From a virus, in IMG/VR virus record IMGVR_UViG_3300036719_006047, positions 62,001 to 126,000 of that record: DNA of 64,000 nt; one strand, written 5' to 3'. The first letter of the stretch is position 1. Each line of letters opens with the position of its first letter. A program made the position numbers and the translations under genes. Below the pieces are notes generated by a model that searched no databases, had not been told where the DNA came from, and saw only the letters and a program-made list of their open reading frames with translations. Positions 1,445 to 61,950 of this stretch are shown here, one piece after another.

Positions 1445-1735
1445 CGTGCGTGTCGTGCGTGTCGTGCGTGTCGTGCGTGTCGCACGTGTCGTGCGTGTCG
1501 CACGTGTCGTGCGCGTCACGCGTGTCGCACGTGTCGCACGTGACGTGGGAGTCGTACGTGTCGCACGTGACGTAGGGACCGTACGTGTCGCACGTGACGC
1601 ACGTGTCGCACGTGACGTACGTCCACTCCGTACGGCGCGCACGTTACGTACCCGCTCCGTACGGCGCGCACGTAACGTGCATGCACGTACGCCCACCGTA
1701 CGTCCGCACGGACGTGCGCATGTGTACGTGATAGA
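1445..1735. repeat. Degenerate 9-bp tandem repeat array (CGTGTCGCA-type)
   Basis: About twenty units of a 9-base repeat, CGTGTCGTG / CGTGTCGCA / CGTGACGTA, run almost without gap from about 1449 to 1620. They then decay into two longer units around CTCCGTACGGCGCGCACGT (about 1626 and 1656) and CGTACG palindromes to about 1735. An AT-richer stretch follows at 1745-1790. The period is three codons, so both strands carry long meaningless frames. Iteron arrays next to AT-rich DNA are typical of replication origins or partition sites. That role is inference. Protein-coding is ruled out by the trivial V-R-V-A composition. Confidence 0.8.
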
Positions 1736-1932: not shown

Positions 1933-2712
1933 ATGTCCGCTGTTCTCCCCGCGCAGGCCTTCGTCGAGACCTCCACCATCACCGTCCCCGTGGACGGCCG
2001 CCAGCGGGTGTTCTTCGGCCACACGGCCGAGGACACGACCCAGTACCTCTGGGTGTTCAAGGCGGGGGGCGCCATCGAGGCGTTCCCCGGGCGCGACCCG
2101 AAGTCGCTGCCCTCGGTCGAGGGGGTCGAGGGCCGCATCCTCGTCCCCCTCACGACGGACAACTTCGGGGTCCAGCCCGGGGCGCGCGGCTCCACGCTCG
2201 TGGCCACCGAGGCGGCCCGCGGCCGCCGCCGCGACGAGCTGCGCGGCCTCGGCACCCCCGCCCCCGCGCCCGCCCCCGCCCCCGTGACCGGCACCCCCGC
2301 CGCGGGGCTCGCCTTCGGGGTGCCCCGCGCCCCCACCGCCGCCTCCACGAAGGTCGCCGCGCCGCCCCCGGCGCCCCCGGCGGTCAAGCCCGACGACCCC
2401 CGCGCCGTCGGGCTCTACAAGGGCACGCTGACGATCTCCGCGGCCATCGAGGGGCTCACGTCCGCGGAAATCGTGGCCCTCACGGCCGCGGTGAGGGCGC
2501 TCAAGGAGCGCCACGCGGCCGAGGAGGCGGCGATGGCCGCCGCCGTGGACGGGCTGAAGCAGCTCATGGGCGAGATCCCCGGCGTCGTGACGCCCGTCGC
2601 GCCGTCCGCCCCCGTGGCTCCGTCCGCCTACGACGACGCCACCGCTGACGCCGACGCCGACGACGACATCGGCCTCGACGACGACGAGGCCCCCGTCGCC
2701 GGCGTGGGGTAG
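1933..2712 (+). CDS. Unknown GC-rich protein with Pro/Ala-rich linker and acidic tail
   Basis: This 259-residue protein of unknown function starts at the ATG preceded by GGAGGC. Residues 1-95 look like a compact beta-rich domain. A low-complexity Ala/Pro linker follows (about 105-150), then a helical segment around residues 160-215. The tail ends in a D/A-rich run. GC content is visibly higher than in the 6-35 kb genes. It is first in the group of four GC-rich genes but lacks the repeated leader found before the other three. A strong hairpin follows the stop. Confidence 0.75.
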   Translation: MSAVLPAQAFVETSTITVPVDGRQRVFFGHTAEDTTQYLWVFKAGGAIEAFPGRDPKSLPSVEGVEGRILVPLTTDNFGVQPGARGSTLVATEAARGRRRDELRGLGTPAPAPAPAPVTGTPAAGLAFGVPRAPTAASTKVAAPPPAPPAVKPDDPRAVGLYKGTLTISAAIEGLTSAEIVALTAAVRALKERHAAEEAAMAAAVDGLKQLMGEIPGVVTPVAPSAPVAPSAYDDATADADADDDIGLDDDEAPVAGVG

Positions 2713-2718
2713 CCCCCA

Positions 2719-2752
2719 GGCAGGGGTGAGGGTTTAGGCCCTCGCCCCTGCC
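2719..2752 (+). terminator. Strong hairpin after the 1933 gene
   Basis: GGCAGGGGTGAGGG (2719-2732) pairs with CCCTCGCCCCTGCC (2739-2752) over 14 positions with one G-T, around a TTTAGG loop. It begins 7 bases after the stop codon. There is no T-run after it, so factor-independent termination is uncertain. Confidence 0.5.
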
Positions 2753-2769
2753 CGGTCCGTGACCGTCAC

Positions 2770-2936
2770 GGGCCCGTGCTGACTTCACGCGAGATCGCGT
2801 GAGGTCATCTCGGCCTCGTGGCCGTGCGCTCAAGCTCGTGGTGAGCGAGAGCACAACCCAGCGGAGTGTCTACGCGCCCGCGGACACTTCGCATCACGTA
2901 CGTCACGTACGTGTTTGAGCGGGCATAGGAGCTACC
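2770..2936 (+). repeat. Repeated ~160-bp structured leader, copy A
   Basis: This is the first of three near-identical sequences, each ending at a start codon. Hairpin 1: GACTTCACGCG / CGCGTGAGGTC with a 4-base loop. Hairpin 2 is built on GTGC-GCTC / GAGC-GAGA-GCAC. Hairpin 3 is closed by GTGTC / GACAC. CACGTACGT words follow, then AGGAG as the ribosome site. Copies A and C carry one more 9-base CACGTACGT-type unit than copy B. It may be a 5' UTR control element or a recombination tract that lets the downstream genes be exchanged. Confidence 0.75.
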
Positions 2937-3284
2937 ATGACCTACACCGAAACCCTCGCGGAAAAGGCGGTTGAGGGCCTGGGCATCGGCTTTGGCGGGA
3001 CCTCGCAAGTCTCGCCCGACGTGCTCGGGCAGGCCCTCGCGGGCCAGATCAACAACGGGGGATGGGCGCTCATCGCGCCCGTCTCCCACTGGCAGGACGT
3101 CCTCTTCCGCGCGTGGGAGGGGGATGGGGATTACTGGGAGGACGACGATCGTGAGGCGGCGAAGGCCGCATTCGTGGCGGGGTTCGAGGCTACAATCCTC
3201 GCGCTGGGCCTCAGCCTCGAAGAAGTGTACGCGGCGCAACCGCCGCCTCCGGCCGAGCCCCCTCAGCCTGGGGATCATTGGTAG
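2937..3284 (+). CDS. Unknown 115-aa protein behind leader copy A
   Basis: The start is fixed by AGGAG five bases upstream, inside the conserved leader. The protein is Gly/Ala-rich in its first half and acidic in the middle (GDGDYWEDDDRE). It has a helical stretch near residues 72-92 and a Pro-rich tail. No family is recognised. It does not resemble the other two proteins that share the leader. The GC-rich codon use matches the 1.9-4.9 kb group. Confidence 0.7.
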   Translation: MTYTETLAEKAVEGLGIGFGGTSQVSPDVLGQALAGQINNGGWALIAPVSHWQDVLFRAWEGDGDYWEDDDREAAKAAFVAGFEATILALGLSLEEVYAAQPPPPAEPPQPGDHW

Positions 3285-3297
3285 GCGAGGGGCCTGC

Positions 3298-3455
3298 GGG
3301 CCCGTGCTGACTTCACGCGAGATCGCGTGAGGTCATCTCGGCCTCGTGGCCGTGCGCTCAAGCTCGTGGTGAGCGAGAGCACAACCGGAAGAAGTGTCTT
3401 TGCGCCCGCGGACACTTCGCATCACGTACGTGCTTGAGCGGGCATAGGAGCTACC
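3298..3455 (+). repeat. Repeated structured leader, copy B
   Basis: Second copy of the leader with the same three hairpin positions and the same TTGAGCGGGCATAGGAG end. It is shorter than copies A and C by one 9-base CACGTACGT-type unit before the ribosome site. Changes fall mostly in loops and in the stem-3 interior. Confidence 0.75.
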
Positions 3456-3836
3456 ATGACCGACAAGCCACATCTGTGGCTGGTGGATCCAGCCATCACA
3501 GAGGAGGACCCGTGCGACGAGTCCTCTGAAGAGTCGGAGGAGGACTACGAGCAAGCAAACGAGCTTGCTCGGGGCATTTTCATGCACCTCACGGGTGCCC
3601 TGGGGCACGCCAAGTACGTGTCTCTGTCCCTGCTGGGTCGGGCAGTCGCGACTCGCGTGCTGCTGGGGGAGCAGCTTGCTCCTCGTCTCCTCGCGTTCGC
3701 GTGCGCGTTGAGGTGGCTGGAAGCCCGGCACGGGGAAAGCCCCGTCTCGGACGAGGACTACGCGTTCGCGTCCGACACATGTCGGGCGGCAATGGTCGTG
3801 TTCCTCGCGGAGCACGACGTCACCTCCAGAAGTTAG
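3456..3836 (+). CDS. Unknown 126-aa protein behind leader copy B
   Basis: The ATG lies four bases after the AGGAG of leader copy B. An acidic stretch at about residues 20-38 (CDESSEESEEDYEQ) precedes a mostly helical remainder with several Leu/Ala-rich segments. No known motif was seen. Codon use is slightly less GC-rich than in the flanking genes. Confidence 0.7.
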   Translation: MTDKPHLWLVDPAITEEDPCDESSEESEEDYEQANELARGIFMHLTGALGHAKYVSLSLLGRAVATRVLLGEQLAPRLLAFACALRWLEARHGESPVSDEDYAFASDTCRAAMVVFLAEHDVTSRS

Positions 3837-3860
3837 GCCAGGGGGCCACGAGGCCGAGAT

Positions 3861-4017
3861 GACTTCACGCGATCTCGCGTGAGGTCGTCTCGGCCTCGTC
3901 GCCGTGAGCTCAAGCTCGTGGTGAGCGAGAGCACAACCGGAAGAAGTGTCTACGCGCCCGCGGACACTTCGCATCACGTACGTCACGTACGTGTTTGAGC
4001 GGGCATAGGAGCTACAC
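3861..4017 (+). repeat. Repeated structured leader, copy C
   Basis: Third copy. The loop of hairpin 1 reads ATCT where copies A and B read AGAT, while the 11-bp stem is unchanged. It ends two bases longer before the ATG at 4018. The preceding ~24 bases (after the stop at 3836) are GC-rich with no obvious feature. Confidence 0.75.
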
Positions 4018-4932
4018 ATGACCGCGCTTTACACTGACCCCTACGCAGACCCCTACTCGTTCGCCAAGGCCGCCGGCTGGGAGGGGCAGATTGTGCCCTT
4101 CCCGGGCGAGGACCACTTCCGCACCGTCACGGTGCGGGACGAGACCGTGACGGTCCTCGTCGCTCTCGGGCTCGGGGGCTACTACGCCCCCGTGAACGAC
4201 AAGGGGCAGATCCTCGTCCGGCCCCCCCAGGTGGGGGACCTGCTCCACTACCTCCCCGACATCCTGGGCTGGATGGGCCAGCCCACCAAGCTGCGCCCGG
4301 AGGCGCTGCTGACCCCCGGCTGGGCCAAGACCTGGCCCGGCAAGTACACGGACCAGAACCTTCGGGAGGTCGAGGAGCGGCGGGCCGCCCGTGAGGCGAA
4401 GGCGGTGAAGCCGACCTCCGCGGCGTCGGCCCCCGCCGCCCCGTCCCCGGCCCAGGTCGGTCCGGTGAAGGCGAAGGTGAGCTTCGGCTCGCCGTCGCCT
4501 TCCTCCTCGTCGCCCGCGCTCGACAGCGACTCCGGGCCGTTCTCGGTCGAGGGAACCATCGACATGCACGACACCGGCGTCGTGCAGCCCTCGGTCGAGG
4601 CCACCGCGCCGCCGGCGCCCGCCGCCCCCGTGAAGGCGAAGGTGAGCTTCGGCTCGCCGTCGCCCTCCCCCTCGCCCTCCTCCCCGGCCGCCCCTCCTGT
4701 CCTCGACCCCATCGTGGACGAGAGCGGGCTGTGGTTCCTGCGCCGCGCGGAGATCACCTGGGACCAGTGGTTCCAGGAGGTCGTCGCCTTCGCGGAAGGC
4801 GAAGGCAACCCGTCGCTGATCGCGCACGGGCTCGCCGCGGGCCTGCCGCTCGTGCGGCCGACCGACCCGAACCGGGTCGATTTCCGCAAGAGCAAGTTCA
4901 CCGCCCCGCTCGGGCGGCCCCCGGGCTCGTAG
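4018..4932 (+). CDS. Unknown two-domain protein with duplicated KAKVSFGSPSP linker
   Basis: This 304-residue protein has an N-terminal ~115-residue domain, a long Ala/Pro/Ser linker and a C-terminal ~70-residue domain rich in Trp and Phe. The linker holds two copies of V-K-A-K-V-S-F-G-S-P-S-P-S (near residues 150 and 205), a recent-looking internal duplication at both DNA and protein level. No family is recognised. It may be a flexible bridging or virion-associated protein, which is speculation. It is the last gene before the tRNA array. Confidence 0.75.
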   Translation: MTALYTDPYADPYSFAKAAGWEGQIVPFPGEDHFRTVTVRDETVTVLVALGLGGYYAPVNDKGQILVRPPQVGDLLHYLPDILGWMGQPTKLRPEALLTPGWAKTWPGKYTDQNLREVEERRAAREAKAVKPTSAASAPAAPSPAQVGPVKAKVSFGSPSPSSSSPALDSDSGPFSVEGTIDMHDTGVVQPSVEATAPPAPAAPVKAKVSFGSPSPSPSPSSPAAPPVLDPIVDESGLWFLRRAEITWDQWFQEVVAFAEGEGNPSLIAHGLAAGLPLVRPTDPNRVDFRKSKFTAPLGRPPGS

Positions 4933-4943
4933 TGACCTTGCCG

Positions 4944-4977
4944 ACTGTCAATGCTTGAGCGATCGAGCATTGACAGT
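4944..4977. repeat. Perfect 12-bp palindrome upstream of the tRNA array
   Basis: ACTGTCAATGCT (4944-4955) and AGCATTGACAGT (4966-4977) are perfect inverted arms around TGAGCGATCG. The right arm contains the -35 hexamer of the tRNA promoter. It could be a terminator for the 4018 gene, an operator, or both. Confidence 0.65.
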
Positions 4978-4998
4978 TGGCACAGCCCGCGATACCCT
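4970..4998 (+). promoter_or_regulatory. Sigma-70-type promoter for the tRNA array
   Basis: A consensus TTGACA at 4970-4975 is followed after 17 bases by TACCCT at 4993-4998. The first tRNA starts 13 bases later. The -10 is weak (3 of 6). The perfect -35 and its position make it the most plausible array promoter. Confidence 0.5.
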
Positions 4999-5010
4999 GC
5001 GGGTACTTGA

Positions 5011-5084
<74 letters not shown>

Positions 5085-5096
5085 CTTCTTTGACAT

Positions 5097-5167
5097 TGGG
5101 GCGTAGTGTAATGGTAGCACAAGGGGTTTTGGCCCCCTTGGTCCGGGTTCGAGCCCTGGCGCCCCAG
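5097..5167 (+). tRNA. tRNA-Gln (TTG)
   Basis: The acceptor TGGGGCG pairs with CGCCCCA. The anticodon loop TTTTGGC gives TTG. The leading T is normal for bacterial tRNA-Gln. The T-arm GGGTTCGAGCCC is intact and there is no encoded CCA. Confidence 0.93.
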
Positions 5168-5173
5168 TTTTCG

Positions 5174-5390
5174 TTGGTGCTCCAACGCCCCGTGTGCGCG
5201 GGGCTCCCCTTCGCGGGAAAAGGTGCTTGCTAACCACGCACACGGCGGCAAGAAGCTGGGCGGTCGCTGTCGGTCCGTTTCCAGGGTGGACGCCGTAACA
5301 CTGTCCCACGGTAGCGTGTGGGGCGGATCACGTGCGAACGAGGTCGCACGACGTTTGCCAGCCTTCCTCGTCCTTGCTGAAAAAGGCTGG
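5174..5390 (+). ncRNA. Possible structured RNA between tRNA-Gln and tRNA-Leu
   Basis: This 228-base gap in an otherwise tight tRNA array has no convincing gene but several helices. These are GTTGG/CCAAC (about 5174-5187), CCGTGTGCG (5190-5198) with CGCACACGG (5237-5245), GTGCGA/TCGCAC (about 5331-5348) and CCAGCCTT (5358-5365) with AAGGCTGG (5383-5390). The last ends six bases before tRNA-Leu. It may be one or two RNA genes, or just processing structure. Confidence 0.35.
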
Positions 5391-5395
5391 AATTT

Positions 5396-5479
5396 GCGAG
5401 AGTGGTGGAATAGGTAGACGCGCCGGACTCAAAATCCGGTGACCGGAAGGTCGTGCGGGTTCGATTCCCGCCTCTCGCA
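5396..5479 (+). tRNA. tRNA-Leu (CAA)
   Basis: This is a class II tRNA with a long variable arm. The acceptor GCGAGAG pairs with CTCTCGC. The anticodon loop CTCAAAA gives CAA, reading UUG. No encoded CCA. Confidence 0.95.
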
Positions 5480-5483
5480 CTTC

Positions 5484-5556
5484 GCTGGCGTAGCTCAACT
5501 GGCAGAGCAGCGGTTTTGTAAACCGCAGGTTATCGGTTCAAGTCCGTTCGCCAGCT
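5484..5556 (+). tRNA. tRNA-Thr (TGT)
   Basis: The acceptor GCTGGCG pairs with CGCCAGC. The anticodon loop TTTGTAA gives TGT, reading ACA. It starts five bases after tRNA-Leu, so the two are certainly co-transcribed. Confidence 0.93.
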
Positions 5557-5563
5557 TCTTTTC

Positions 5564-5636
5564 GGGGACGTAGCTCAGTTGGGAGAGCACCTGCTTTGCA
5601 CGCAGGGGGTCACGGGTTCGAGTCCCGTCGTCTCCA
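5564..5636 (+). tRNA. tRNA-Ala (TGC)
   Basis: The acceptor GGGGACG pairs with CGTCTCC (one G-T). The anticodon loop TTTGCAC gives TGC. The T-arm CGGGTTCGAGTCCCG is complete. Confidence 0.94.
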
Positions 5637-5644
5637 TTTTGTTT

Positions 5645-5764
5645 GGCCCTCGCGGTGAGGGTAGGGCAGCGTAGCTCATGAAAGGCTTGACCATCGCCAT
5701 CTCCGTGGTTGGTCAGAAGCCCCTCCGAAGCCCTATCCGTTTGACCGTGAGCCCCGCGAGGGCC
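5645..5764 (+). ncRNA. Structured ~120-nt RNA embedded in the tRNA array
   Basis: The element sits 8 bases after tRNA-Ala and 4 bases before tRNA-Asn, like an RNA gene of the array. Three nested helices are visible. P1: GGCCCTCGCGG (5645-5655) with CCGCGAGGGCC (5754-5764), a perfect 11-bp closure. P2: GGGTAGGGC (5659-5667) with GCCCTATCC (5730-5738), nine pairs with one G-T. P3: GGCTT-GACCA (5684-5693) with TGGTC-AG-AAGCC (5710-5721), ten pairs with a 2-base bulge. It does not fold as a tRNA. Phage T4 likewise encodes stable non-tRNA RNAs (C and D) within its tRNA cluster. Function unknown. Confidence 0.65.
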
Positions 5765-5768
5765 TTTT

Positions 5769-5843
5769 GCCGACATAGCTCAGTGGTAGAGCAGGCGGCT
5801 GTTAACCGCCTTGTCGCAGGTTCGATCCCTGCTGTCGGCGCCA
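5769..5843 (+). tRNA. tRNA-Asn (GTT), CCA encoded
   Basis: The acceptor GCCGACA pairs with TGTCGGC. The anticodon loop CTGTTAA gives GTT. A CCA triplet follows the discriminator at 5841-5843, unlike the other tRNAs here. Confidence 0.95.
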
Positions 5844-5848
5844 CTTCA

Positions 5849-5922
5849 GGGGCGGTAGCTCAGTCGGTCAGAGCACCCGGCTCATACCCGGTATGTCGTG
5901 GGTTCGAGCCCCACCCGCCCTA
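5849..5922 (+). tRNA. tRNA-Met-type (CAT)
   Basis: The acceptor GGGGCGG pairs with CCGCCCT (first pair G-T). The anticodon loop CTCATAC gives CAT. It could be elongator Met or a lysidine-modified Ile tRNA. Sequence alone does not settle this. Confidence 0.9.
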
Positions 5923-5928
5923 CAGTTT

Positions 5929-6012
5929 GCGAGAATGGTGGAACCGGTAGACGCGCTGGATTTAAAATCTGGTGACCGCAAGGTCGTGCGGGTTCGAGCC
6001 CCGCTTCTCGCA
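5929..6012 (+). tRNA. tRNA-Leu (TAA)
   Basis: This is a class II tRNA closely similar to the tRNA-Leu at 5396, so probably a duplication with anticodon change. The acceptor GCGAGAA pairs with TTCTCGC. The anticodon loop TTTAAAA gives TAA, reading UUA. Confidence 0.95.
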
Positions 6013-6019
6013 CACATTC

Positions 6020-6092
<73 letters not shown>

Positions 6093-6119
6093 CACTTTAT
6101 TCGAGGCCAAGGAGGCCGC

Positions 6120-40267: not shown

Positions 40268-41369
40268 TCTGGCTGATGTCATCTTCTCCACTTGGAAGCA
40301 CAACCCCACTCAGTCCATCTTCGTCATGGGGCCGCCCGGCATCGGCAAGACCTCTGTCGCGGCCGCCGTTGTGGATCGCATCCGAAAGTACAACACAGAC
40401 AACAACGTCCAGGGCCCCGTCGTCTGCCACATCAAGGACCTGTCGTCTTCGTTGCCCGAAGACCTCAACGGTCTGCCGAAAACGGACGGCGAGGTGATGC
40501 GCTTCGTTCCCGACACCTGGCTCGCCGAGTGCTGCAACCCTGAAGCCTCCGGCATCCTCATCCTCGACGACCTGCCGGCAGCGACTGCTTCCATTCAGGT
40601 GGCAGCGCGTCAGCTCGTTCTCGACAAGCGCATCCACGAGCACAGGCTGTCCAGCAAAGTCATCGTTGTCGTAACTGGCAATCGTCGTGAGGACGCTTCT
40701 GCGGCCAAGACACTCCCCGCTCACTTCCGCAACTCCGTGTTGACGCTCGAAGCTGAGGCGAACTTGGCGGACTGGACTTCGTGGATGCGCTCCAAGGACG
40801 CAGACCGCTCCGTGACGGACTTCCTGGCCTTCCGGCCGCAGCACTTCTCTCGGCTGCCCGTCAATGCCGACCAGCGCGGGGTGTTCGCAACGCCTCGTAC
40901 CTGGAAGATGCTGTCCGACCTGATGCCGGTCGCTCTCGAGACCAAGAAGCTGTTCGAGATCAGCGCCGGTCTCGTTGGCGAGGGTGTGAGCGCGGAGTTC
41001 GTGGCCTTCAAGGACATGAGTGATGCGCTGCCTGACCCCAAAGCCGTGCTCGAAGACCCCTACAAGCACTACCCCAGCAACCACGACATCTGGTCCAACC
41101 GCCCCGACTTGATGGTTGCCGTGCTGTCGGGCATCTCGTACTACGCAGGCAAGGCCAAGAAGACAAAAGACTTTGTTCCTGTCGACGCTTACGTGAAGGC
41201 TGTTGCCTACTTGTGTTCCCGGTCCACCGAGTACTTCGAGTTCGCTTTCCAGGCTTTCCGCGACAGTGGCGGTCGCGAAATGGCTTTCTTGACGGCCGCG
41301 CAGCAGCTGTCGACGACTGACTCGCGTGTGGCCCAGCTCAAGGCCAAGCTCCGTGAGGTGTTCGCGTGA
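40254..41369 (+). CDS. MoxR-type AAA+ ATPase, copy 1
   Basis: This 371-residue protein has Walker A G-P-P-G-I-G-K-T (26-33), Walker B I-L-I-L-D-D-L (101-107) and sensor 1 V-V-V-T-G-N-R. The L-P-E-D-L-N-G-L-P-K block is typical of the MoxR-like ATPases paired with COG3864 proteins. MoxR ATPases act as chaperones that remodel or load partner complexes, usually with a VWA protein encoded next door, as here. It is about half identical to copy 2 at 59588. An ATG nine bases upstream is also possible. Confidence 0.85.
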   Translation: MRLSDLADVIFSTWKHNPTQSIFVMGPPGIGKTSVAAAVVDRIRKYNTDNNVQGPVVCHIKDLSSSLPEDLNGLPKTDGEVMRFVPDTWLAECCNPEASGILILDDLPAATASIQVAARQLVLDKRIHEHRLSSKVIVVVTGNRREDASAAKTLPAHFRNSVLTLEAEANLADWTSWMRSKDADRSVTDFLAFRPQHFSRLPVNADQRGVFATPRTWKMLSDLMPVALETKKLFEISAGLVGEGVSAEFVAFKDMSDALPDPKAVLEDPYKHYPSNHDIWSNRPDLMVAVLSGISYYAGKAKKTKDFVPVDAYVKAVAYLCSRSTEYFEFAFQAFRDSGGREMAFLTAAQQLSTTDSRVAQLKAKLREVFA

Positions 41370-42538
41370 CTAGCAGAGAAGAGACTTTCGCTCGTTTCTC
41401 GAAGGCGAGAACTTGGTTGATCGGCCGGATGCCTTTCTTCGGGCACCTGGCTCTCAACCTCAAGCTCGATCCTGTGGCCGGGGAAGATCAAGGAGTAGAA
41501 ACGGCTTGCATCTACCCGACGGGTGAACTCATCCTCAACGACAAGTTCGTCGCGTCGTTGACCGATGCTCACTTCAGGTTCGTTCTGGCCCACGAAGTGC
41601 TGCATCCAGCATTGTTGTGCCATGTGCGCCGCAAGGGCAGAGATCATCTCGTCTTCAACATGGCGCACGACTACGCCATCAACTTGATCATCACAGAGGC
41701 AGTCGAAACGGCAAAAGAGCACAACAACTGCTGTATGCCGCTCAAAGGGCTCATCGATAACGCTTACAAAGGCCTTTCCGCAGAAGAAATCTACGACAAG
41801 CTGTTGGAGAAAGCAAGCATCGCTTATTACGCAAAAGGAGGCTTCGATCAAGACGTCGCAGAGAAAGAAGCCAAGACTGAGGACAAGGAGCAAGACAGCA
41901 TCTGGAAAATGCGTCTCGCGGCTGCGAGCGTAGCGGCTTCTCGCTCGAAGAGAGGCAACATTCCTGCCGGGTTGCAGAAGATCATACAAGAGATTTTGCA
42001 GCCCCAGGTGTACTGGCTTGATGTTCTCGCGGAGTACGTGTCGGGTTGTTTGGGCGGAGACATTTTCACTTACAGCAGGCTGAACCGCCGGTCAGAGGGC
42101 GCAGGATGCATCCTGGCCGGAAAGATCAGCGATGAGATGCCCGAAGTGACAGTGTTGTGGGACACGAGCGGTTCGCAGCAGGGGTGGGAAGACACCGTTT
42201 TCGCGGAGCTGAAAAAGCTGCAAGATGACATGGCGGTGCCCTTCCGGCTCATGATCATCGATACCGTGTTGTACGCAGACATGATGGTAGACGACGTCGA
42301 CGATACTCTTTCACAGCTCAAAGGTGGCGGCGGCTCCGACTTCAAACCCGCTTTCGAGAAGCTCGAGCAAGAGAACAACCAGTCAGTCGTCATCGCATTC
42401 ACAGACGGCGCGATCGGTGTGCCAGAGACACCGCCACCGTTGCTCAAAGATGTCATCTGGGTGCTGACGGGACACTATTCGAGCCCCCCGGCACAGTACG
42501 GCCGCTCGATCTACATCGAGAAAGGAAAGTCGAAATGA
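41366..42538 (+). CDS. COG3864-type metallopeptidase-VWA protein, copy 1
   Basis: This 390-residue protein starts at a GTG overlapping the ATPase stop. The N-terminal domain has the zinc motif H-E-V-L-H (76-80) with H86, the HExxH of DUF2201/COG3864 putative metallopeptidases. The C-terminal VWA-like domain has D-T-S-G-S (266-270), G-G-G-S-D-F and F-T-D-G. This fused architecture is the standard partner of MoxR ATPases. The cleavage target is unknown. A Lys/Glu-rich linker (around 160-178) joins the two domains. Confidence 0.85.
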   Translation: MTSREETFARFSKARTWLIGRMPFFGHLALNLKLDPVAGEDQGVETACIYPTGELILNDKFVASLTDAHFRFVLAHEVLHPALLCHVRRKGRDHLVFNMAHDYAINLIITEAVETAKEHNNCCMPLKGLIDNAYKGLSAEEIYDKLLEKASIAYYAKGGFDQDVAEKEAKTEDKEQDSIWKMRLAAASVAASRSKRGNIPAGLQKIIQEILQPQVYWLDVLAEYVSGCLGGDIFTYSRLNRRSEGAGCILAGKISDEMPEVTVLWDTSGSQQGWEDTVFAELKKLQDDMAVPFRLMIIDTVLYADMMVDDVDDTLSQLKGGGGSDFKPAFEKLEQENNQSVVIAFTDGAIGVPETPPPLLKDVIWVLTGHYSSPPAQYGRSIYIEKGKSK

Positions 42539-59081: not shown

Positions 59082-59591
59082 ATGATCACAGTTCTAGGAG
59101 AACACACACTGAAACTGGACGGGCAAGACGTAGTGCTCGTCGAGCTGAAAGATGAGACGACGGGGGCAATCTCTTTCGTAACCAAGTATCCGGTGACGAG
59201 AGACTTGTTTCCTGCGATTGAACCAAGCGGGAAAGCCAGCGAAGCCCTGCAAATCGAGGAGAGGAACTTCAACTTAGGCACGACAGAAGCTGTGATCGAA
59301 GAGGTTGCGAAGCAAGATCCTATCCTTTCGCACTACCAGTACCCCGAGAGAACAGACCACCTGCTCCGAGCGGTAAGCGAAGACAGTGGTCTGAGAGCAT
59401 CTTTGCTCTCGAGCAGCTTGCTGAAAAAGATGTTTTTGACCGAGAGGATGTTCGGAAACGATCTTGTCTTGTCCCATGAAGTTGCGTTCAAAGAGAACAG
59501 ATTGCCATTCCGTCTGAGCCACGCAACACAGAGTGTTTGCGGAGTGCTCTTTATCCCCTGCAACATCCCTGTCCTAGTGAGGAAGTCATGA
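59082..59591 (+). CDS. Unknown 169-aa protein upstream of MoxR copy 2
   Basis: A beta-rich N-terminus (VLGEHTLKLDGQDVVLVEL) precedes a helical remainder. It has no counterpart in the first MoxR operon by eye. It overlaps the ATPase gene by four bases, so it is probably a dedicated partner. Confidence 0.7.
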   Translation: MITVLGEHTLKLDGQDVVLVELKDETTGAISFVTKYPVTRDLFPAIEPSGKASEALQIEERNFNLGTTEAVIEEVAKQDPILSHYQYPERTDHLLRAVSEDSGLRASLLSSSLLKKMFLTERMFGNDLVLSHEVAFKENRLPFRLSHATQSVCGVLFIPCNIPVLVRKS

Positions 59592-60694
59592 AGTTCGCCC
59601 AAGCTGTCCGTCTCGTCTGCGCCAACCACAAGTCCAGCACGAAGCAGACGTTGTTTTTCCTCGGCCCGCCCGGCATCGGCAAGAGCAGCATCGCTTACGA
59701 GGCGAAGCGGGTGCTGAAAGAAACTGACTTGATCGACGTTGACGTGGTTGTTGTCGACCTCAGCAACGCTTTGCCCGAAGACCTCAACGGTCTGCCGAAG
59801 ACTGAAGGCGAGGTGATGCGCTTCATTCCAGACGAATGGCTGCACCGCCTTTGTCGGCCGGGGGCACAAGCTATTTTGGTGCTCGACGACCTCGCAGCGG
59901 CCTCGTCTGCCATTCAGGTGGCCACTCGTCAGCTTGCGCTCGATCGCAGGATTCACAATCACATCTTGTCTGATGGCGTAAGCATCATCGTCACGGGTAA
60001 CAGGTCAACAGACGGCGCGAAAGCCACACAGCTTCCGAGCCACTTCCGCAACTCAGTGCTTCTGATCTCGATCGATCCCGACTTTGATGCGTGGGTTTCG
60101 TGGTACAGGCACCAAGAGAACGTCGACCGCTCTATTGTCTCGTTCCTGTTATTCGCAAAGAAGTTCTTCAGCACTGTGCCGCAAGAAGCCGACAAGCTCG
60201 GAGCTTTCGCTACTCCCCGTTCGTGGTCGATGCTGGGTAGGTTGCTGCCACAAGTCGTGCCCTTGGGGGACGAAGACATTCTTCGCGAGACAGTCCACGG
60301 CCTCGTCGGCACAGGGCCGGGCGTAGAGTACTTGGCCTTCCGGTCCATGCAGAACGACACTGTCGACATCCAAGACTTCTTGCGAGACCCGAAAAGGACG
60401 CTGCCTGCTCCTTCCGACCTCGAGCGCTCCTACTTGATCGCGATCTGCTCGGCTGCCGTGACTCGCGTGGTCGAGGGCAAAGGGTCCGATGACTACGACA
60501 AGTTGGTCTACGCGATGGCGCACGTGGCGACCGACAAAAGAGACTTGTTTGCTTACGCCTTCCAGCTCGCTGAGTCGCTCGGAGGCAAGGAAGCTCGCCA
60601 GAGGTTCAGCTTTGCCGTGAGCCGGGTGGCGAAGCAAGACAAGTCGGTTCTCAGCTTGGTCAAGACCATCTCTGACTTGCTGGGTCAGTTCTGA
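59588..60694 (+). CDS. MoxR-type AAA+ ATPase, copy 2
   Basis: This 368-residue protein has Walker A G-P-P-G-I-G-K-S (26-33) and Walker B I-L-V-L-D-D-L (96-102). The A-L-P-E-D-L-N-G-L-P-K-T block, S-H-F-R-N-S-V-L and the I-V-T-G-N-R sensor are shared with copy 1 at 40254. It probably works with the next gene, as MoxR/VWA pairs do. Confidence 0.85.
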   Translation: MKFAQAVRLVCANHKSSTKQTLFFLGPPGIGKSSIAYEAKRVLKETDLIDVDVVVVDLSNALPEDLNGLPKTEGEVMRFIPDEWLHRLCRPGAQAILVLDDLAAASSAIQVATRQLALDRRIHNHILSDGVSIIVTGNRSTDGAKATQLPSHFRNSVLLISIDPDFDAWVSWYRHQENVDRSIVSFLLFAKKFFSTVPQEADKLGAFATPRSWSMLGRLLPQVVPLGDEDILRETVHGLVGTGPGVEYLAFRSMQNDTVDIQDFLRDPKRTLPAPSDLERSYLIAICSAAVTRVVEGKGSDDYDKLVYAMAHVATDKRDLFAYAFQLAESLGGKEARQRFSFAVSRVAKQDKSVLSLVKTISDLLGQF

Positions 60695-61950
60695 TGCAAG
60701 ACTTGAACAATAAGTGGGAAGCAGCTCTGCTTTCTCTGTCCTTCGCGTATCCCTTCTACGCGCACTTGCTCTACAAGGCGAAGCTGCAGTTTGTCGACAA
60801 CGACAAGTTGACTGCAAAGGTCAACCACAAGCTTGAGATCAAGATGGGAGCGAAGTTTGCGCGAAGCCTGTCGCAGACAGAGTTCTCGGGAGTTGTTCTT
60901 CACGAGGTATTGCACGTTGTGCTCGGATACCACGAACGGCTCAACACCAAAGACCATGTTTTGTTCAATATCGCTCACGACTACATCGTGAACGGCCTTG
61001 TGCAAGAAGCGCAGAAACACAAGTTCCGAGGGAATGACGTAGTCTGCTTGGCGGATGGATGTCTTCTCGAGCCGACGTGGTCGCACCTGGCTGCAGAAGA
61101 GATCTATGCTTTCTTGTCGGAGAGAGTCGAGAACAACGGAGGCAAAAGGAAGGTTAAGCTCAAATGCTACAACAAGACGAAGGGCAACTCGGAAGAAGTT
61201 GAAGTCGATCTCAACGAAAGCATGTACACGGACGTGGAAGAGTACGATCTACTGAGCGAATCTGAGATCAGGCAGCTGTCCTTGGAGATGGCGCAGCTAC
61301 TCAAAGAAGCAGAAATGCATCACAAGAGCAGCCGAGGAACTCTGCCCAGCGAGCTGCAGATCCGCATCGACGCTATTTGCACGCCGAAGATCCACTGGAA
61401 CTCCTTCATACGGAATCATGTGGGTAGTCGAATCGGTTCGCCCCATCCCACCTACATGCGCCGAAGCAGGAGGTCGGAAGCAGTAGGAGAGATACTTCCT
61501 GGATGGCGCAAAGATTCAGCCTCAAACATCATCTTGTTGTGGGACACCAGCGGGTCGATGTACGGGATGCACGAAGTTATTCTTTCTGAGTTTCGGTCTC
61601 TCGTGAGAGAGATGGGCTACTCGCTGCGCCTCATTCAGTGCGACGCGGCCGTGCAGTCAGACATGCTCCTCGAAGACGAGACTGTCATCGTCAAAGGCCA
61701 CGGCGGCTCCGATTTCCAGCCAGCGTTCAAGCTGCTGGAAGAGGAAAACGAGGATGTGTACGTCATCGCAATGACGGACGGGGAGATTGGGTACCCAGAA
61801 GACAAGCCAAGCTGCGTAAAGGACATTTTGTGGGTCTACACAAGGCTTTATTCCGGCTACCCGCCGCCTTACTTGTTCTCTTACGGAGACTGCATTCAGT
61901 TCGACGTCAAAGAAGGGACCGTCACTATCTTGCGTCGAGGTCACGCCTAA
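60694..61950 (+). CDS. COG3864-type metallopeptidase-VWA protein, copy 2
   Basis: This 418-residue protein has the zinc motif H-E-V-L-H (70-74) with H80, and a VWA-like domain with D-T-S-G-S (284-288), G-G-S-D-F-Q-P and M-T-D-G. It has the same architecture as the 41366 protein, with a different charged linker region. It shares one base with the ATPase stop and one with the next start. Duplication of the whole ATPase/VWA unit within the phage is the simplest explanation. Confidence 0.85.
   Translation: MQDLNNKWEAALLSLSFAYPFYAHLLYKAKLQFVDNDKLTAKVNHKLEIKMGAKFARSLSQTEFSGVVLHEVLHVVLGYHERLNTKDHVLFNIAHDYIVNGLVQEAQKHKFRGNDVVCLADGCLLEPTWSHLAAEEIYAFLSERVENNGGKRKVKLKCYNKTKGNSEEVEVDLNESMYTDVEEYDLLSESEIRQLSLEMAQLLKEAEMHHKSSRGTLPSELQIRIDAICTPKIHWNSFIRNHVGSRIGSPHPTYMRRSRRSEAVGEILPGWRKDSASNIILLWDTSGSMYGMHEVILSEFRSLVREMGYSLRLIQCDAAVQSDMLLEDETVIVKGHGGSDFQPAFKLLEEENEDVYVIAMTDGEIGYPEDKPSCVKDILWVYTRLYSGYPPPYLFSYGDCIQFDVKEGTVTILRRGHA

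What the first reader, a model, noticed from the sequence alone, without database searches (positions are those of the whole stretch)
5645..5764. Unassigned ~120-nt structured RNA inside the tRNA array
Three nested helices of 11, 9 and 10 pairs, with the closing helix perfect, exactly fill the space between tRNA-Ala and tRNA-Asn. It lacks a tRNA fold. T4 carries stable RNAs C and D of unknown function in its tRNA cluster, so this may be an analogous phage RNA.
Basis: partly seen in the sequence, partly recalled or inferred. Interest (0 to 1): 0.7.

Follow-up and report, generated by a model that had tools for sequence, protein, structure and literature searches.

The report
Orphan structured RNA in phage tRNA array
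Between two tRNA genes of an uncultured phage sits a 120-base stretch that folds far better than chance into one compact RNA, like a small-RNA gene placed where a tRNA would be, but no relative was found, so its function and even its expression remain unproven.

Summary
Window 5645-5764 folds into helices of 11, 9 and 10 pairs (-60.1 kcal/mol, z -5.0, 0 of 200 shuffles as stable). It is spaced like a tRNA: 8 nt after tRNA-Ala, 4 nt before tRNA-Asn. It folds as a separate module when folded with both neighbours, which keep their cloverleaves. Relative to shuffles it folds better than the nine tRNAs, and it exceeds 16 comparison gaps from other phage arrays in z and closing helix. It is not a tRNA or tmRNA and matches no Rfam family.

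The T4 comparison holds by position and size only: rnaC (tRNA T-arm) and rnaD (no end-to-end helix) share neither sequence nor fold with it. No homologue was found in phages, plasmids or fetched loci; exact-pattern scans of IMG/VR gave only chance hits. Covariation, the decisive test, could not be run. Most likely it is a discrete small RNA released by processing of the flanking tRNAs; a protein-binding or decoy role is a guess. A cis-acting processing hairpin or a MITE-like relic is not excluded.

The parts
5645..5764 (+). 120-nt structured RNA element (candidate small-RNA gene)
5645..5655 (+). P1 5' strand, GGCCCTCGCGG, pairs with 5754-5764, 11 perfect bp
5754..5764 (+). P1 3' strand, CCGCGAGGGCC
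5659..5667 (+). P2 5' strand, pairs with 5730-5738, 9 bp
5730..5738 (+). P2 3' strand
5684..5721 (+). P3 hairpin, 10 bp with a 2-nt bulge, plus 5-bp apical extension
5674..5680 (+). putative pseudoknot arm GCUCAUG, in the loop inside P2, pairs with 5746-5752
   Evidence: duplex -11.2 kcal/mol, 2.5% of loop shuffles as good; inferred
5746..5752 (+). putative pseudoknot arm CGUGAGC, between P2 and P1; the nested MFE puts a weak G-U-rich 4-bp hairpin here instead
   Evidence: inferred
5564..5636 (+). tRNA-Ala(UGC); its 3' processing would set the 5' side of the released RNA
   Evidence: role inferred
5769..5843 (+). tRNA-Asn(GUU); its RNase P cleavage would set the 3' side
   Evidence: role inferred
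5011..6093 (+). array of nine tRNA genes
4970..4998 (+). possible array promoter TTGACA-N17-TACCCT, about 12 nt upstream of tRNA-Arg
   Evidence: read from the sequence; the -10 hexamer matches only 3 of 6, and the scan did not call it

Best explanation
The element is a small non-coding RNA gene that occupies one slot of the phage tRNA operon. It is co-transcribed with the tRNAs (inferred from orientation and spacing). 3' processing of tRNA-Ala and RNase P cleavage at tRNA-Asn would free a precursor of about 132 nt (inferred). The 11-bp GC-rich end clamp, with 8- and 4-nt tails, would keep the RNA stable (the fold is computed, the stability inferred). Inside the clamp, P2/P3 and a possible pseudoknot form a compact, mostly paired body. 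That shape fits an RNA that binds a protein, or acts as a decoy for an RNA-acting host factor, better than an antisense RNA, because little of it is exposed and it shows no unusual complementarity to the phage's own sequence. This last step is a guess.
For: z -5.0. Closing helix 2/5000 in shuffles. Modular fold with both flanking cloverleaves intact. Flanks of 8 and 4 nt match the other short inter-tRNA spacers of about 3-10 nt. Fold z of -4.6 beats all nine tRNAs, -1.5 to -3.3, under the same test. Strongest z and longest end helix (11 against 4-7) when compared with 16 gaps of 60-300 nt from other phage tRNA arrays and the other long gap of this array. No excess complementarity to the phage genome. 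ORFs across it hit no family significantly. T4 sets the precedent that tRNA clusters make small non-tRNA RNAs (PMC3014915).
Against: No homologue and so no covariation; no expression data. About 1% of the genome's windows fold as strongly. The opposite strand folds nearly as well. The pseudoknot has only modest support. The binding or decoy role rests on no direct evidence.
Confidence: 0.5

Rival explanations
1. Cis-acting processing hairpin: the structure is only a spacer that insulates the tRNA folds or serves as an RNase III-type cleavage site dividing the long precursor, and is then degraded.
For: An 11-bp GC clamp plus a 9-bp P2 is a plausible double-strand substrate; the element lies mid-array; it folds without disturbing its neighbours.
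Against: The other junctions of the array make do with spacers of about 3-10 nt, apart from one 227-nt gap that is not unusually folded (z -1.2). P3 and the possible pseudoknot are more than a cleavage hairpin needs.
Confidence: 0.22
2. Relic of a small inserted element with terminal inverted repeats (MITE-like), which folds because its ends are inverted repeats.
For: 11-bp perfect terminal inverted repeats and T-rich flanks (TTTTG on both sides) that could hide a target duplication. Phage RNAs domesticated from MITE-like elements have been suggested (PMC7567579).
Against: Only copy in the phage record; no copy in phages or plasmids by blastn; internal helices P2 and P3 are not expected of a simple MITE.
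Confidence: 0.12
3. Degenerate or unusual tRNA (pseudogene, intron-containing, or fused remnants).
For: A GCGTAGCTCA string at 5669-5678 resembles the D-arm region of the neighbouring tRNA-Thr; MAFFT aligns GGTCAGAAGCCC weakly with the T-arm.
Against: No Rfam tRNA match at E up to 10 within the element; ARAGORN finds nothing there with introns allowed or with thresholds relaxed to 50-60%; no T-arm GGTTCGA.
Confidence: 0.06
4. Chance structure in a GC-rich, neutral spacer, or a DNA-level palindrome without an RNA role.
For: 18 of 2276 genome windows reach z of -5 or lower; single sequence only.
Against: Structure fills the spacer with matched ends; 2/5000 shuffles give such a clamp; several of the other top windows fall on the repeated leaders at 2701-3960 and on the inverted repeat at 4939-4982, which may be functional structures themselves.
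Confidence: 0.1

Closest known systems
Phage T4 RNAs C and D (rnaC/species 1, rnaD/species 2)
   Same: Small non-tRNA RNAs of 139 and 119 nt encoded in a phage tRNA cluster; roles unknown (PMC3014915).
   Different: rnaC carries a T-arm (CCGGGUUCGAAUCCCGG) and looks tRNA-derived; rnaD lacks an end-to-end helix (z -0.8). They lie at the downstream end of the T4 cluster, not between tRNAs. No match by the element's covariance model.
GOLLD and ROOL RNAs
   Same: Structured phage/prophage RNAs of unknown function often encoded near tRNA islands; ROOL is predicted to hold several pseudoknots (PMC12286853; PMC7567579).
   Different: Much larger (GOLLD often over 800 nt); no Rfam match here.
phi29 packaging RNA (pRNA)
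   Same: Similar size (its essential form is about 120 nt), paired 5'/3' ends and a three-way junction (from memory, not tested by fold comparison).
   Different: No Rfam match; different phage group and position; nothing here ties it to packaging.
Y RNAs (Ro60-binding)
   Same: Terminal helix closing a compact RNA, tRNA-linked biology (from memory).
   Different: No Ro60 (TROVE) protein in the phage record; the only Y RNA-like Rfam hits, all below threshold, fall on the tRNAs and not on the element.

Membership tests
tRNA (RF00005) | cloverleaf with T-arm and anticodon arm scored by covariance model | tested here: not met
   no match in 5645-5764 at E up to 10; ARAGORN negative, also relaxed and with introns
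tmRNA | tRNA-like domain plus tag reading frame | tested here: not met
   ARAGORN tmRNA mode negative; no Rfam tmRNA match in the element
T4 RNA C / RNA D | sequence or structural homology to T4 rnaC or rnaD | tested here: not met
   covariance model R1 finds nothing in T4 locus L025; folds differ
T4 RNA C / RNA D (as a functional kind) | stable small RNA accumulates during infection | not testable with these tools
   no transcriptome for this uncultured phage
GOLLD / ROOL | large conserved structured core matching the Rfam models | tested here: not met
   no match; 120 nt is far too short
any Rfam 15 family | score at or above gathering threshold | tested here: not met
   control: the same scan does not find T4 rnaC or rnaD in L025, so Rfam silence is weak evidence for this kind of RNA
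new conserved RNA family | homologues with compensatory base changes | tested here: inconclusive
   no homologue found, so no covariation can be counted
MITE / small mobile element | multiple copies with terminal inverted repeats | tested here: not met
   inverted ends present, but one copy in the record and none found elsewhere

The most novel reading that the evidence does not exclude
A previously undescribed class of phage small RNA, pseudoknotted and end-clamped, built into a tRNA operon so that tRNA processing makes its ends, and acting in trans on the host, for example as a decoy for an RNA-targeting defence factor.
Probability: 0.25. Interest if true: 0.7.

Novelty: new member of a known kind. 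Interest (0 to 1): 0.4.

Why it matters
Phage tRNA clusters sometimes carry non-tRNA small RNAs (T4 RNAs C and D; GOLLD and ROOL nearby) whose roles have stayed open. A compact, single-module example flanked by tRNA processing sites would be a good test case, but only once it is shown to be expressed or conserved.

Tried and rejected
Homologue searches: blastn of the element in phages and plasmids (only short matches of 20-34 nt with E of 1 or more); exact core patterns in IMG/VR (none; 3 hits, none with the flanking structure or an adjoining tRNA; 21 hits to a repetitive 18-mer, with no similarity beyond it). Covariance model R1 over 613 kb of loci (only itself plus a 17.6-bit hit in L058 with E 1.5, taken as chance) and over 25 whole records or genomes (none). 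Relatives of the phage by protein: DprA-like neighbour 26-47% identity in unrelated contexts, RIIA none, helicase one 100% contig of 30.7 kb that does not reach the array plus 27-29% hits, DNA polymerase the same contig, AAA ATPase none. Rejected: Y RNA/Ro60, antisense to phage transcripts (best 13 and 15 against shuffles up to 15 and 16), coding ORFs, the other long spacer 5169-5395 as a second structured RNA (z -1.2). The similarity in length to T4 rnaD (119 nt) led nowhere structurally.

Full report
What is there. The window is part of a 136,910-base virus record that carries phage genes: RIIA/RIIB-like, a DprA-like protein, DNA polymerase, helicases. Nine tRNA genes lie at 5011-6093, all on the + strand. 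Most spacers between them are short (about 3-10 nt). Two are long: 5169-5395 (227 nt) and 5637-5768 (132 nt). The finding is the second.

The structure. 5645-5764 folds with 11 perfect closing pairs, a 9-bp P2 and a 10-bp P3, at -60.1 kcal/mol, z -5.0, none of 200 shuffles as stable. The end clamp of 11 bp appears in 2 of 5000 shuffles of the spacer. Folding the 280 nt from tRNA-Ala to tRNA-Asn keeps both cloverleaves and the element as three separate modules. Under one common test the element scores z -4.6 and the nine tRNAs -1.5 to -3.3. In a small comparison of gaps of 60-300 nt in tRNA arrays of other phages, this gap had the lowest z (-5.04; next -3.84) and by far the longest end helix (11; others 4-7). 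The comparison set is a convenience sample of loci already fetched, and at least one of its gaps hides a missed tRNA (L063 5040-5136). Across the phage record 18 of 2276 windows reach z of -5 or lower, so the fold is exceptional but not unique in this genome; several of the others are intergenic leaders and an inverted repeat that look functional themselves.

A possible pseudoknot. The loop inside P2 (GCUCAUG, 5674-5680) can pair with the segment between P2 and P1 (CGUGAGC, 5746-5752): six Watson-Crick pairs and one G-U, duplex energy -11.2 kcal/mol, matched by 2.5% of shuffles of the two loops. The nested prediction places a weak G-U-rich hairpin there. I searched for this after seeing the sequence, so the 2.5% is optimistic.

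What it is not. It is not a tRNA, an intron-bearing tRNA or a tmRNA by ARAGORN, also with relaxed thresholds, and no Rfam model lies within the element on its + strand even at E 10. The same Rfam scan also fails to report T4 rnaC and rnaD in the T4 locus, so an Rfam blank is weak evidence for this kind of RNA. ORFs across it match no protein family significantly. There is no Ro60 protein, and no unusual complementarity to the rest of the phage.

Comparison with T4. T4 rnaC is 139 nt and rnaD 119 nt, next to each other at the downstream end of the tRNA cluster. rnaC contains a T-arm and rnaD lacks an end-to-end helix. The element's covariance model does not match them. The analogy is of place and size. 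A review states that their roles are unknown (PMC3014915).

Relatives. None was found: blastn in phages and plasmids, exact patterns in IMG/VR (with the hits examined), and a covariance model over fetched loci and 25 records. The patterns demand exact matches of 17-32 bases and the model is built from a single sequence, so a diverged homologue could be missed. Protein queries gave no close relative of the phage apart from one identical 30.7-kb contig that does not hold the array. Covariation therefore cannot be judged.

Mechanism. Shown: sequence, spacing, computed fold, modularity. Inferred: co-transcription, release by processing of the flanking tRNAs, stability from the clamp. Guessed: binding or sequestering a protein. 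I put 0.5 on a discrete small RNA and much less on any particular role.

Verdict. A real and statistically unusual structure; a candidate small RNA of the kind T4 carries, as an orphan without comparative or expression support.

Noticed in passing
window 2767-2939, 3295-3459, 3840-4021: Three intergenic leaders of about 165-180 nt, 80-92% identical over a 169-nt register, sit before three consecutive small + strand ORFs and end in a shared GCGGGCATAGGAGCTAC before ATG. They contain long hairpins, and the windows at 2701, 3781 and 3841 give the strongest folds of the whole record (z -8 to -10). They may be a repeated regulatory leader or promoter.
   Followed up: partly
window 2001-5000: GC content 0.65-0.74 against about 0.55 elsewhere in the record, directly before the tRNA array; possibly a later acquisition.
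   Followed up: no
window 1445-1678: Tandem array of 9-nt units (CGTACGTGT-like, about 20 copies) followed by a 29-nt repeat.
   Followed up: no
window 4939-4982: 20-nt inverted repeat, 90% complementary with a 4-nt loop, upstream of the tRNA array and overlapping a TTGACA hexamer; terminator of the upstream gene or an operator.
   Followed up: no
L014:11776-16581 (- strand): 1601-aa DNA polymerase ORF interrupted by segments resembling inserts seen in other phage proteins (thymidylate synthase, PhoH, ribonucleotide reductase families), probably inteins.
   Followed up: no
window 41366-42538, 59537-61950; L016:1843-5076: Repeated genes of PHROG families 1297 (ATPase) and 1314 (HNH endonuclease), twice as an adjacent pair.
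   Followed up: no
L063:5040-5136 (Klebsiella phage FBKp24): Rfam finds a tRNA (38 bits) in a gap where the record's annotation has none and ARAGORN called no tRNA.
   Followed up: no
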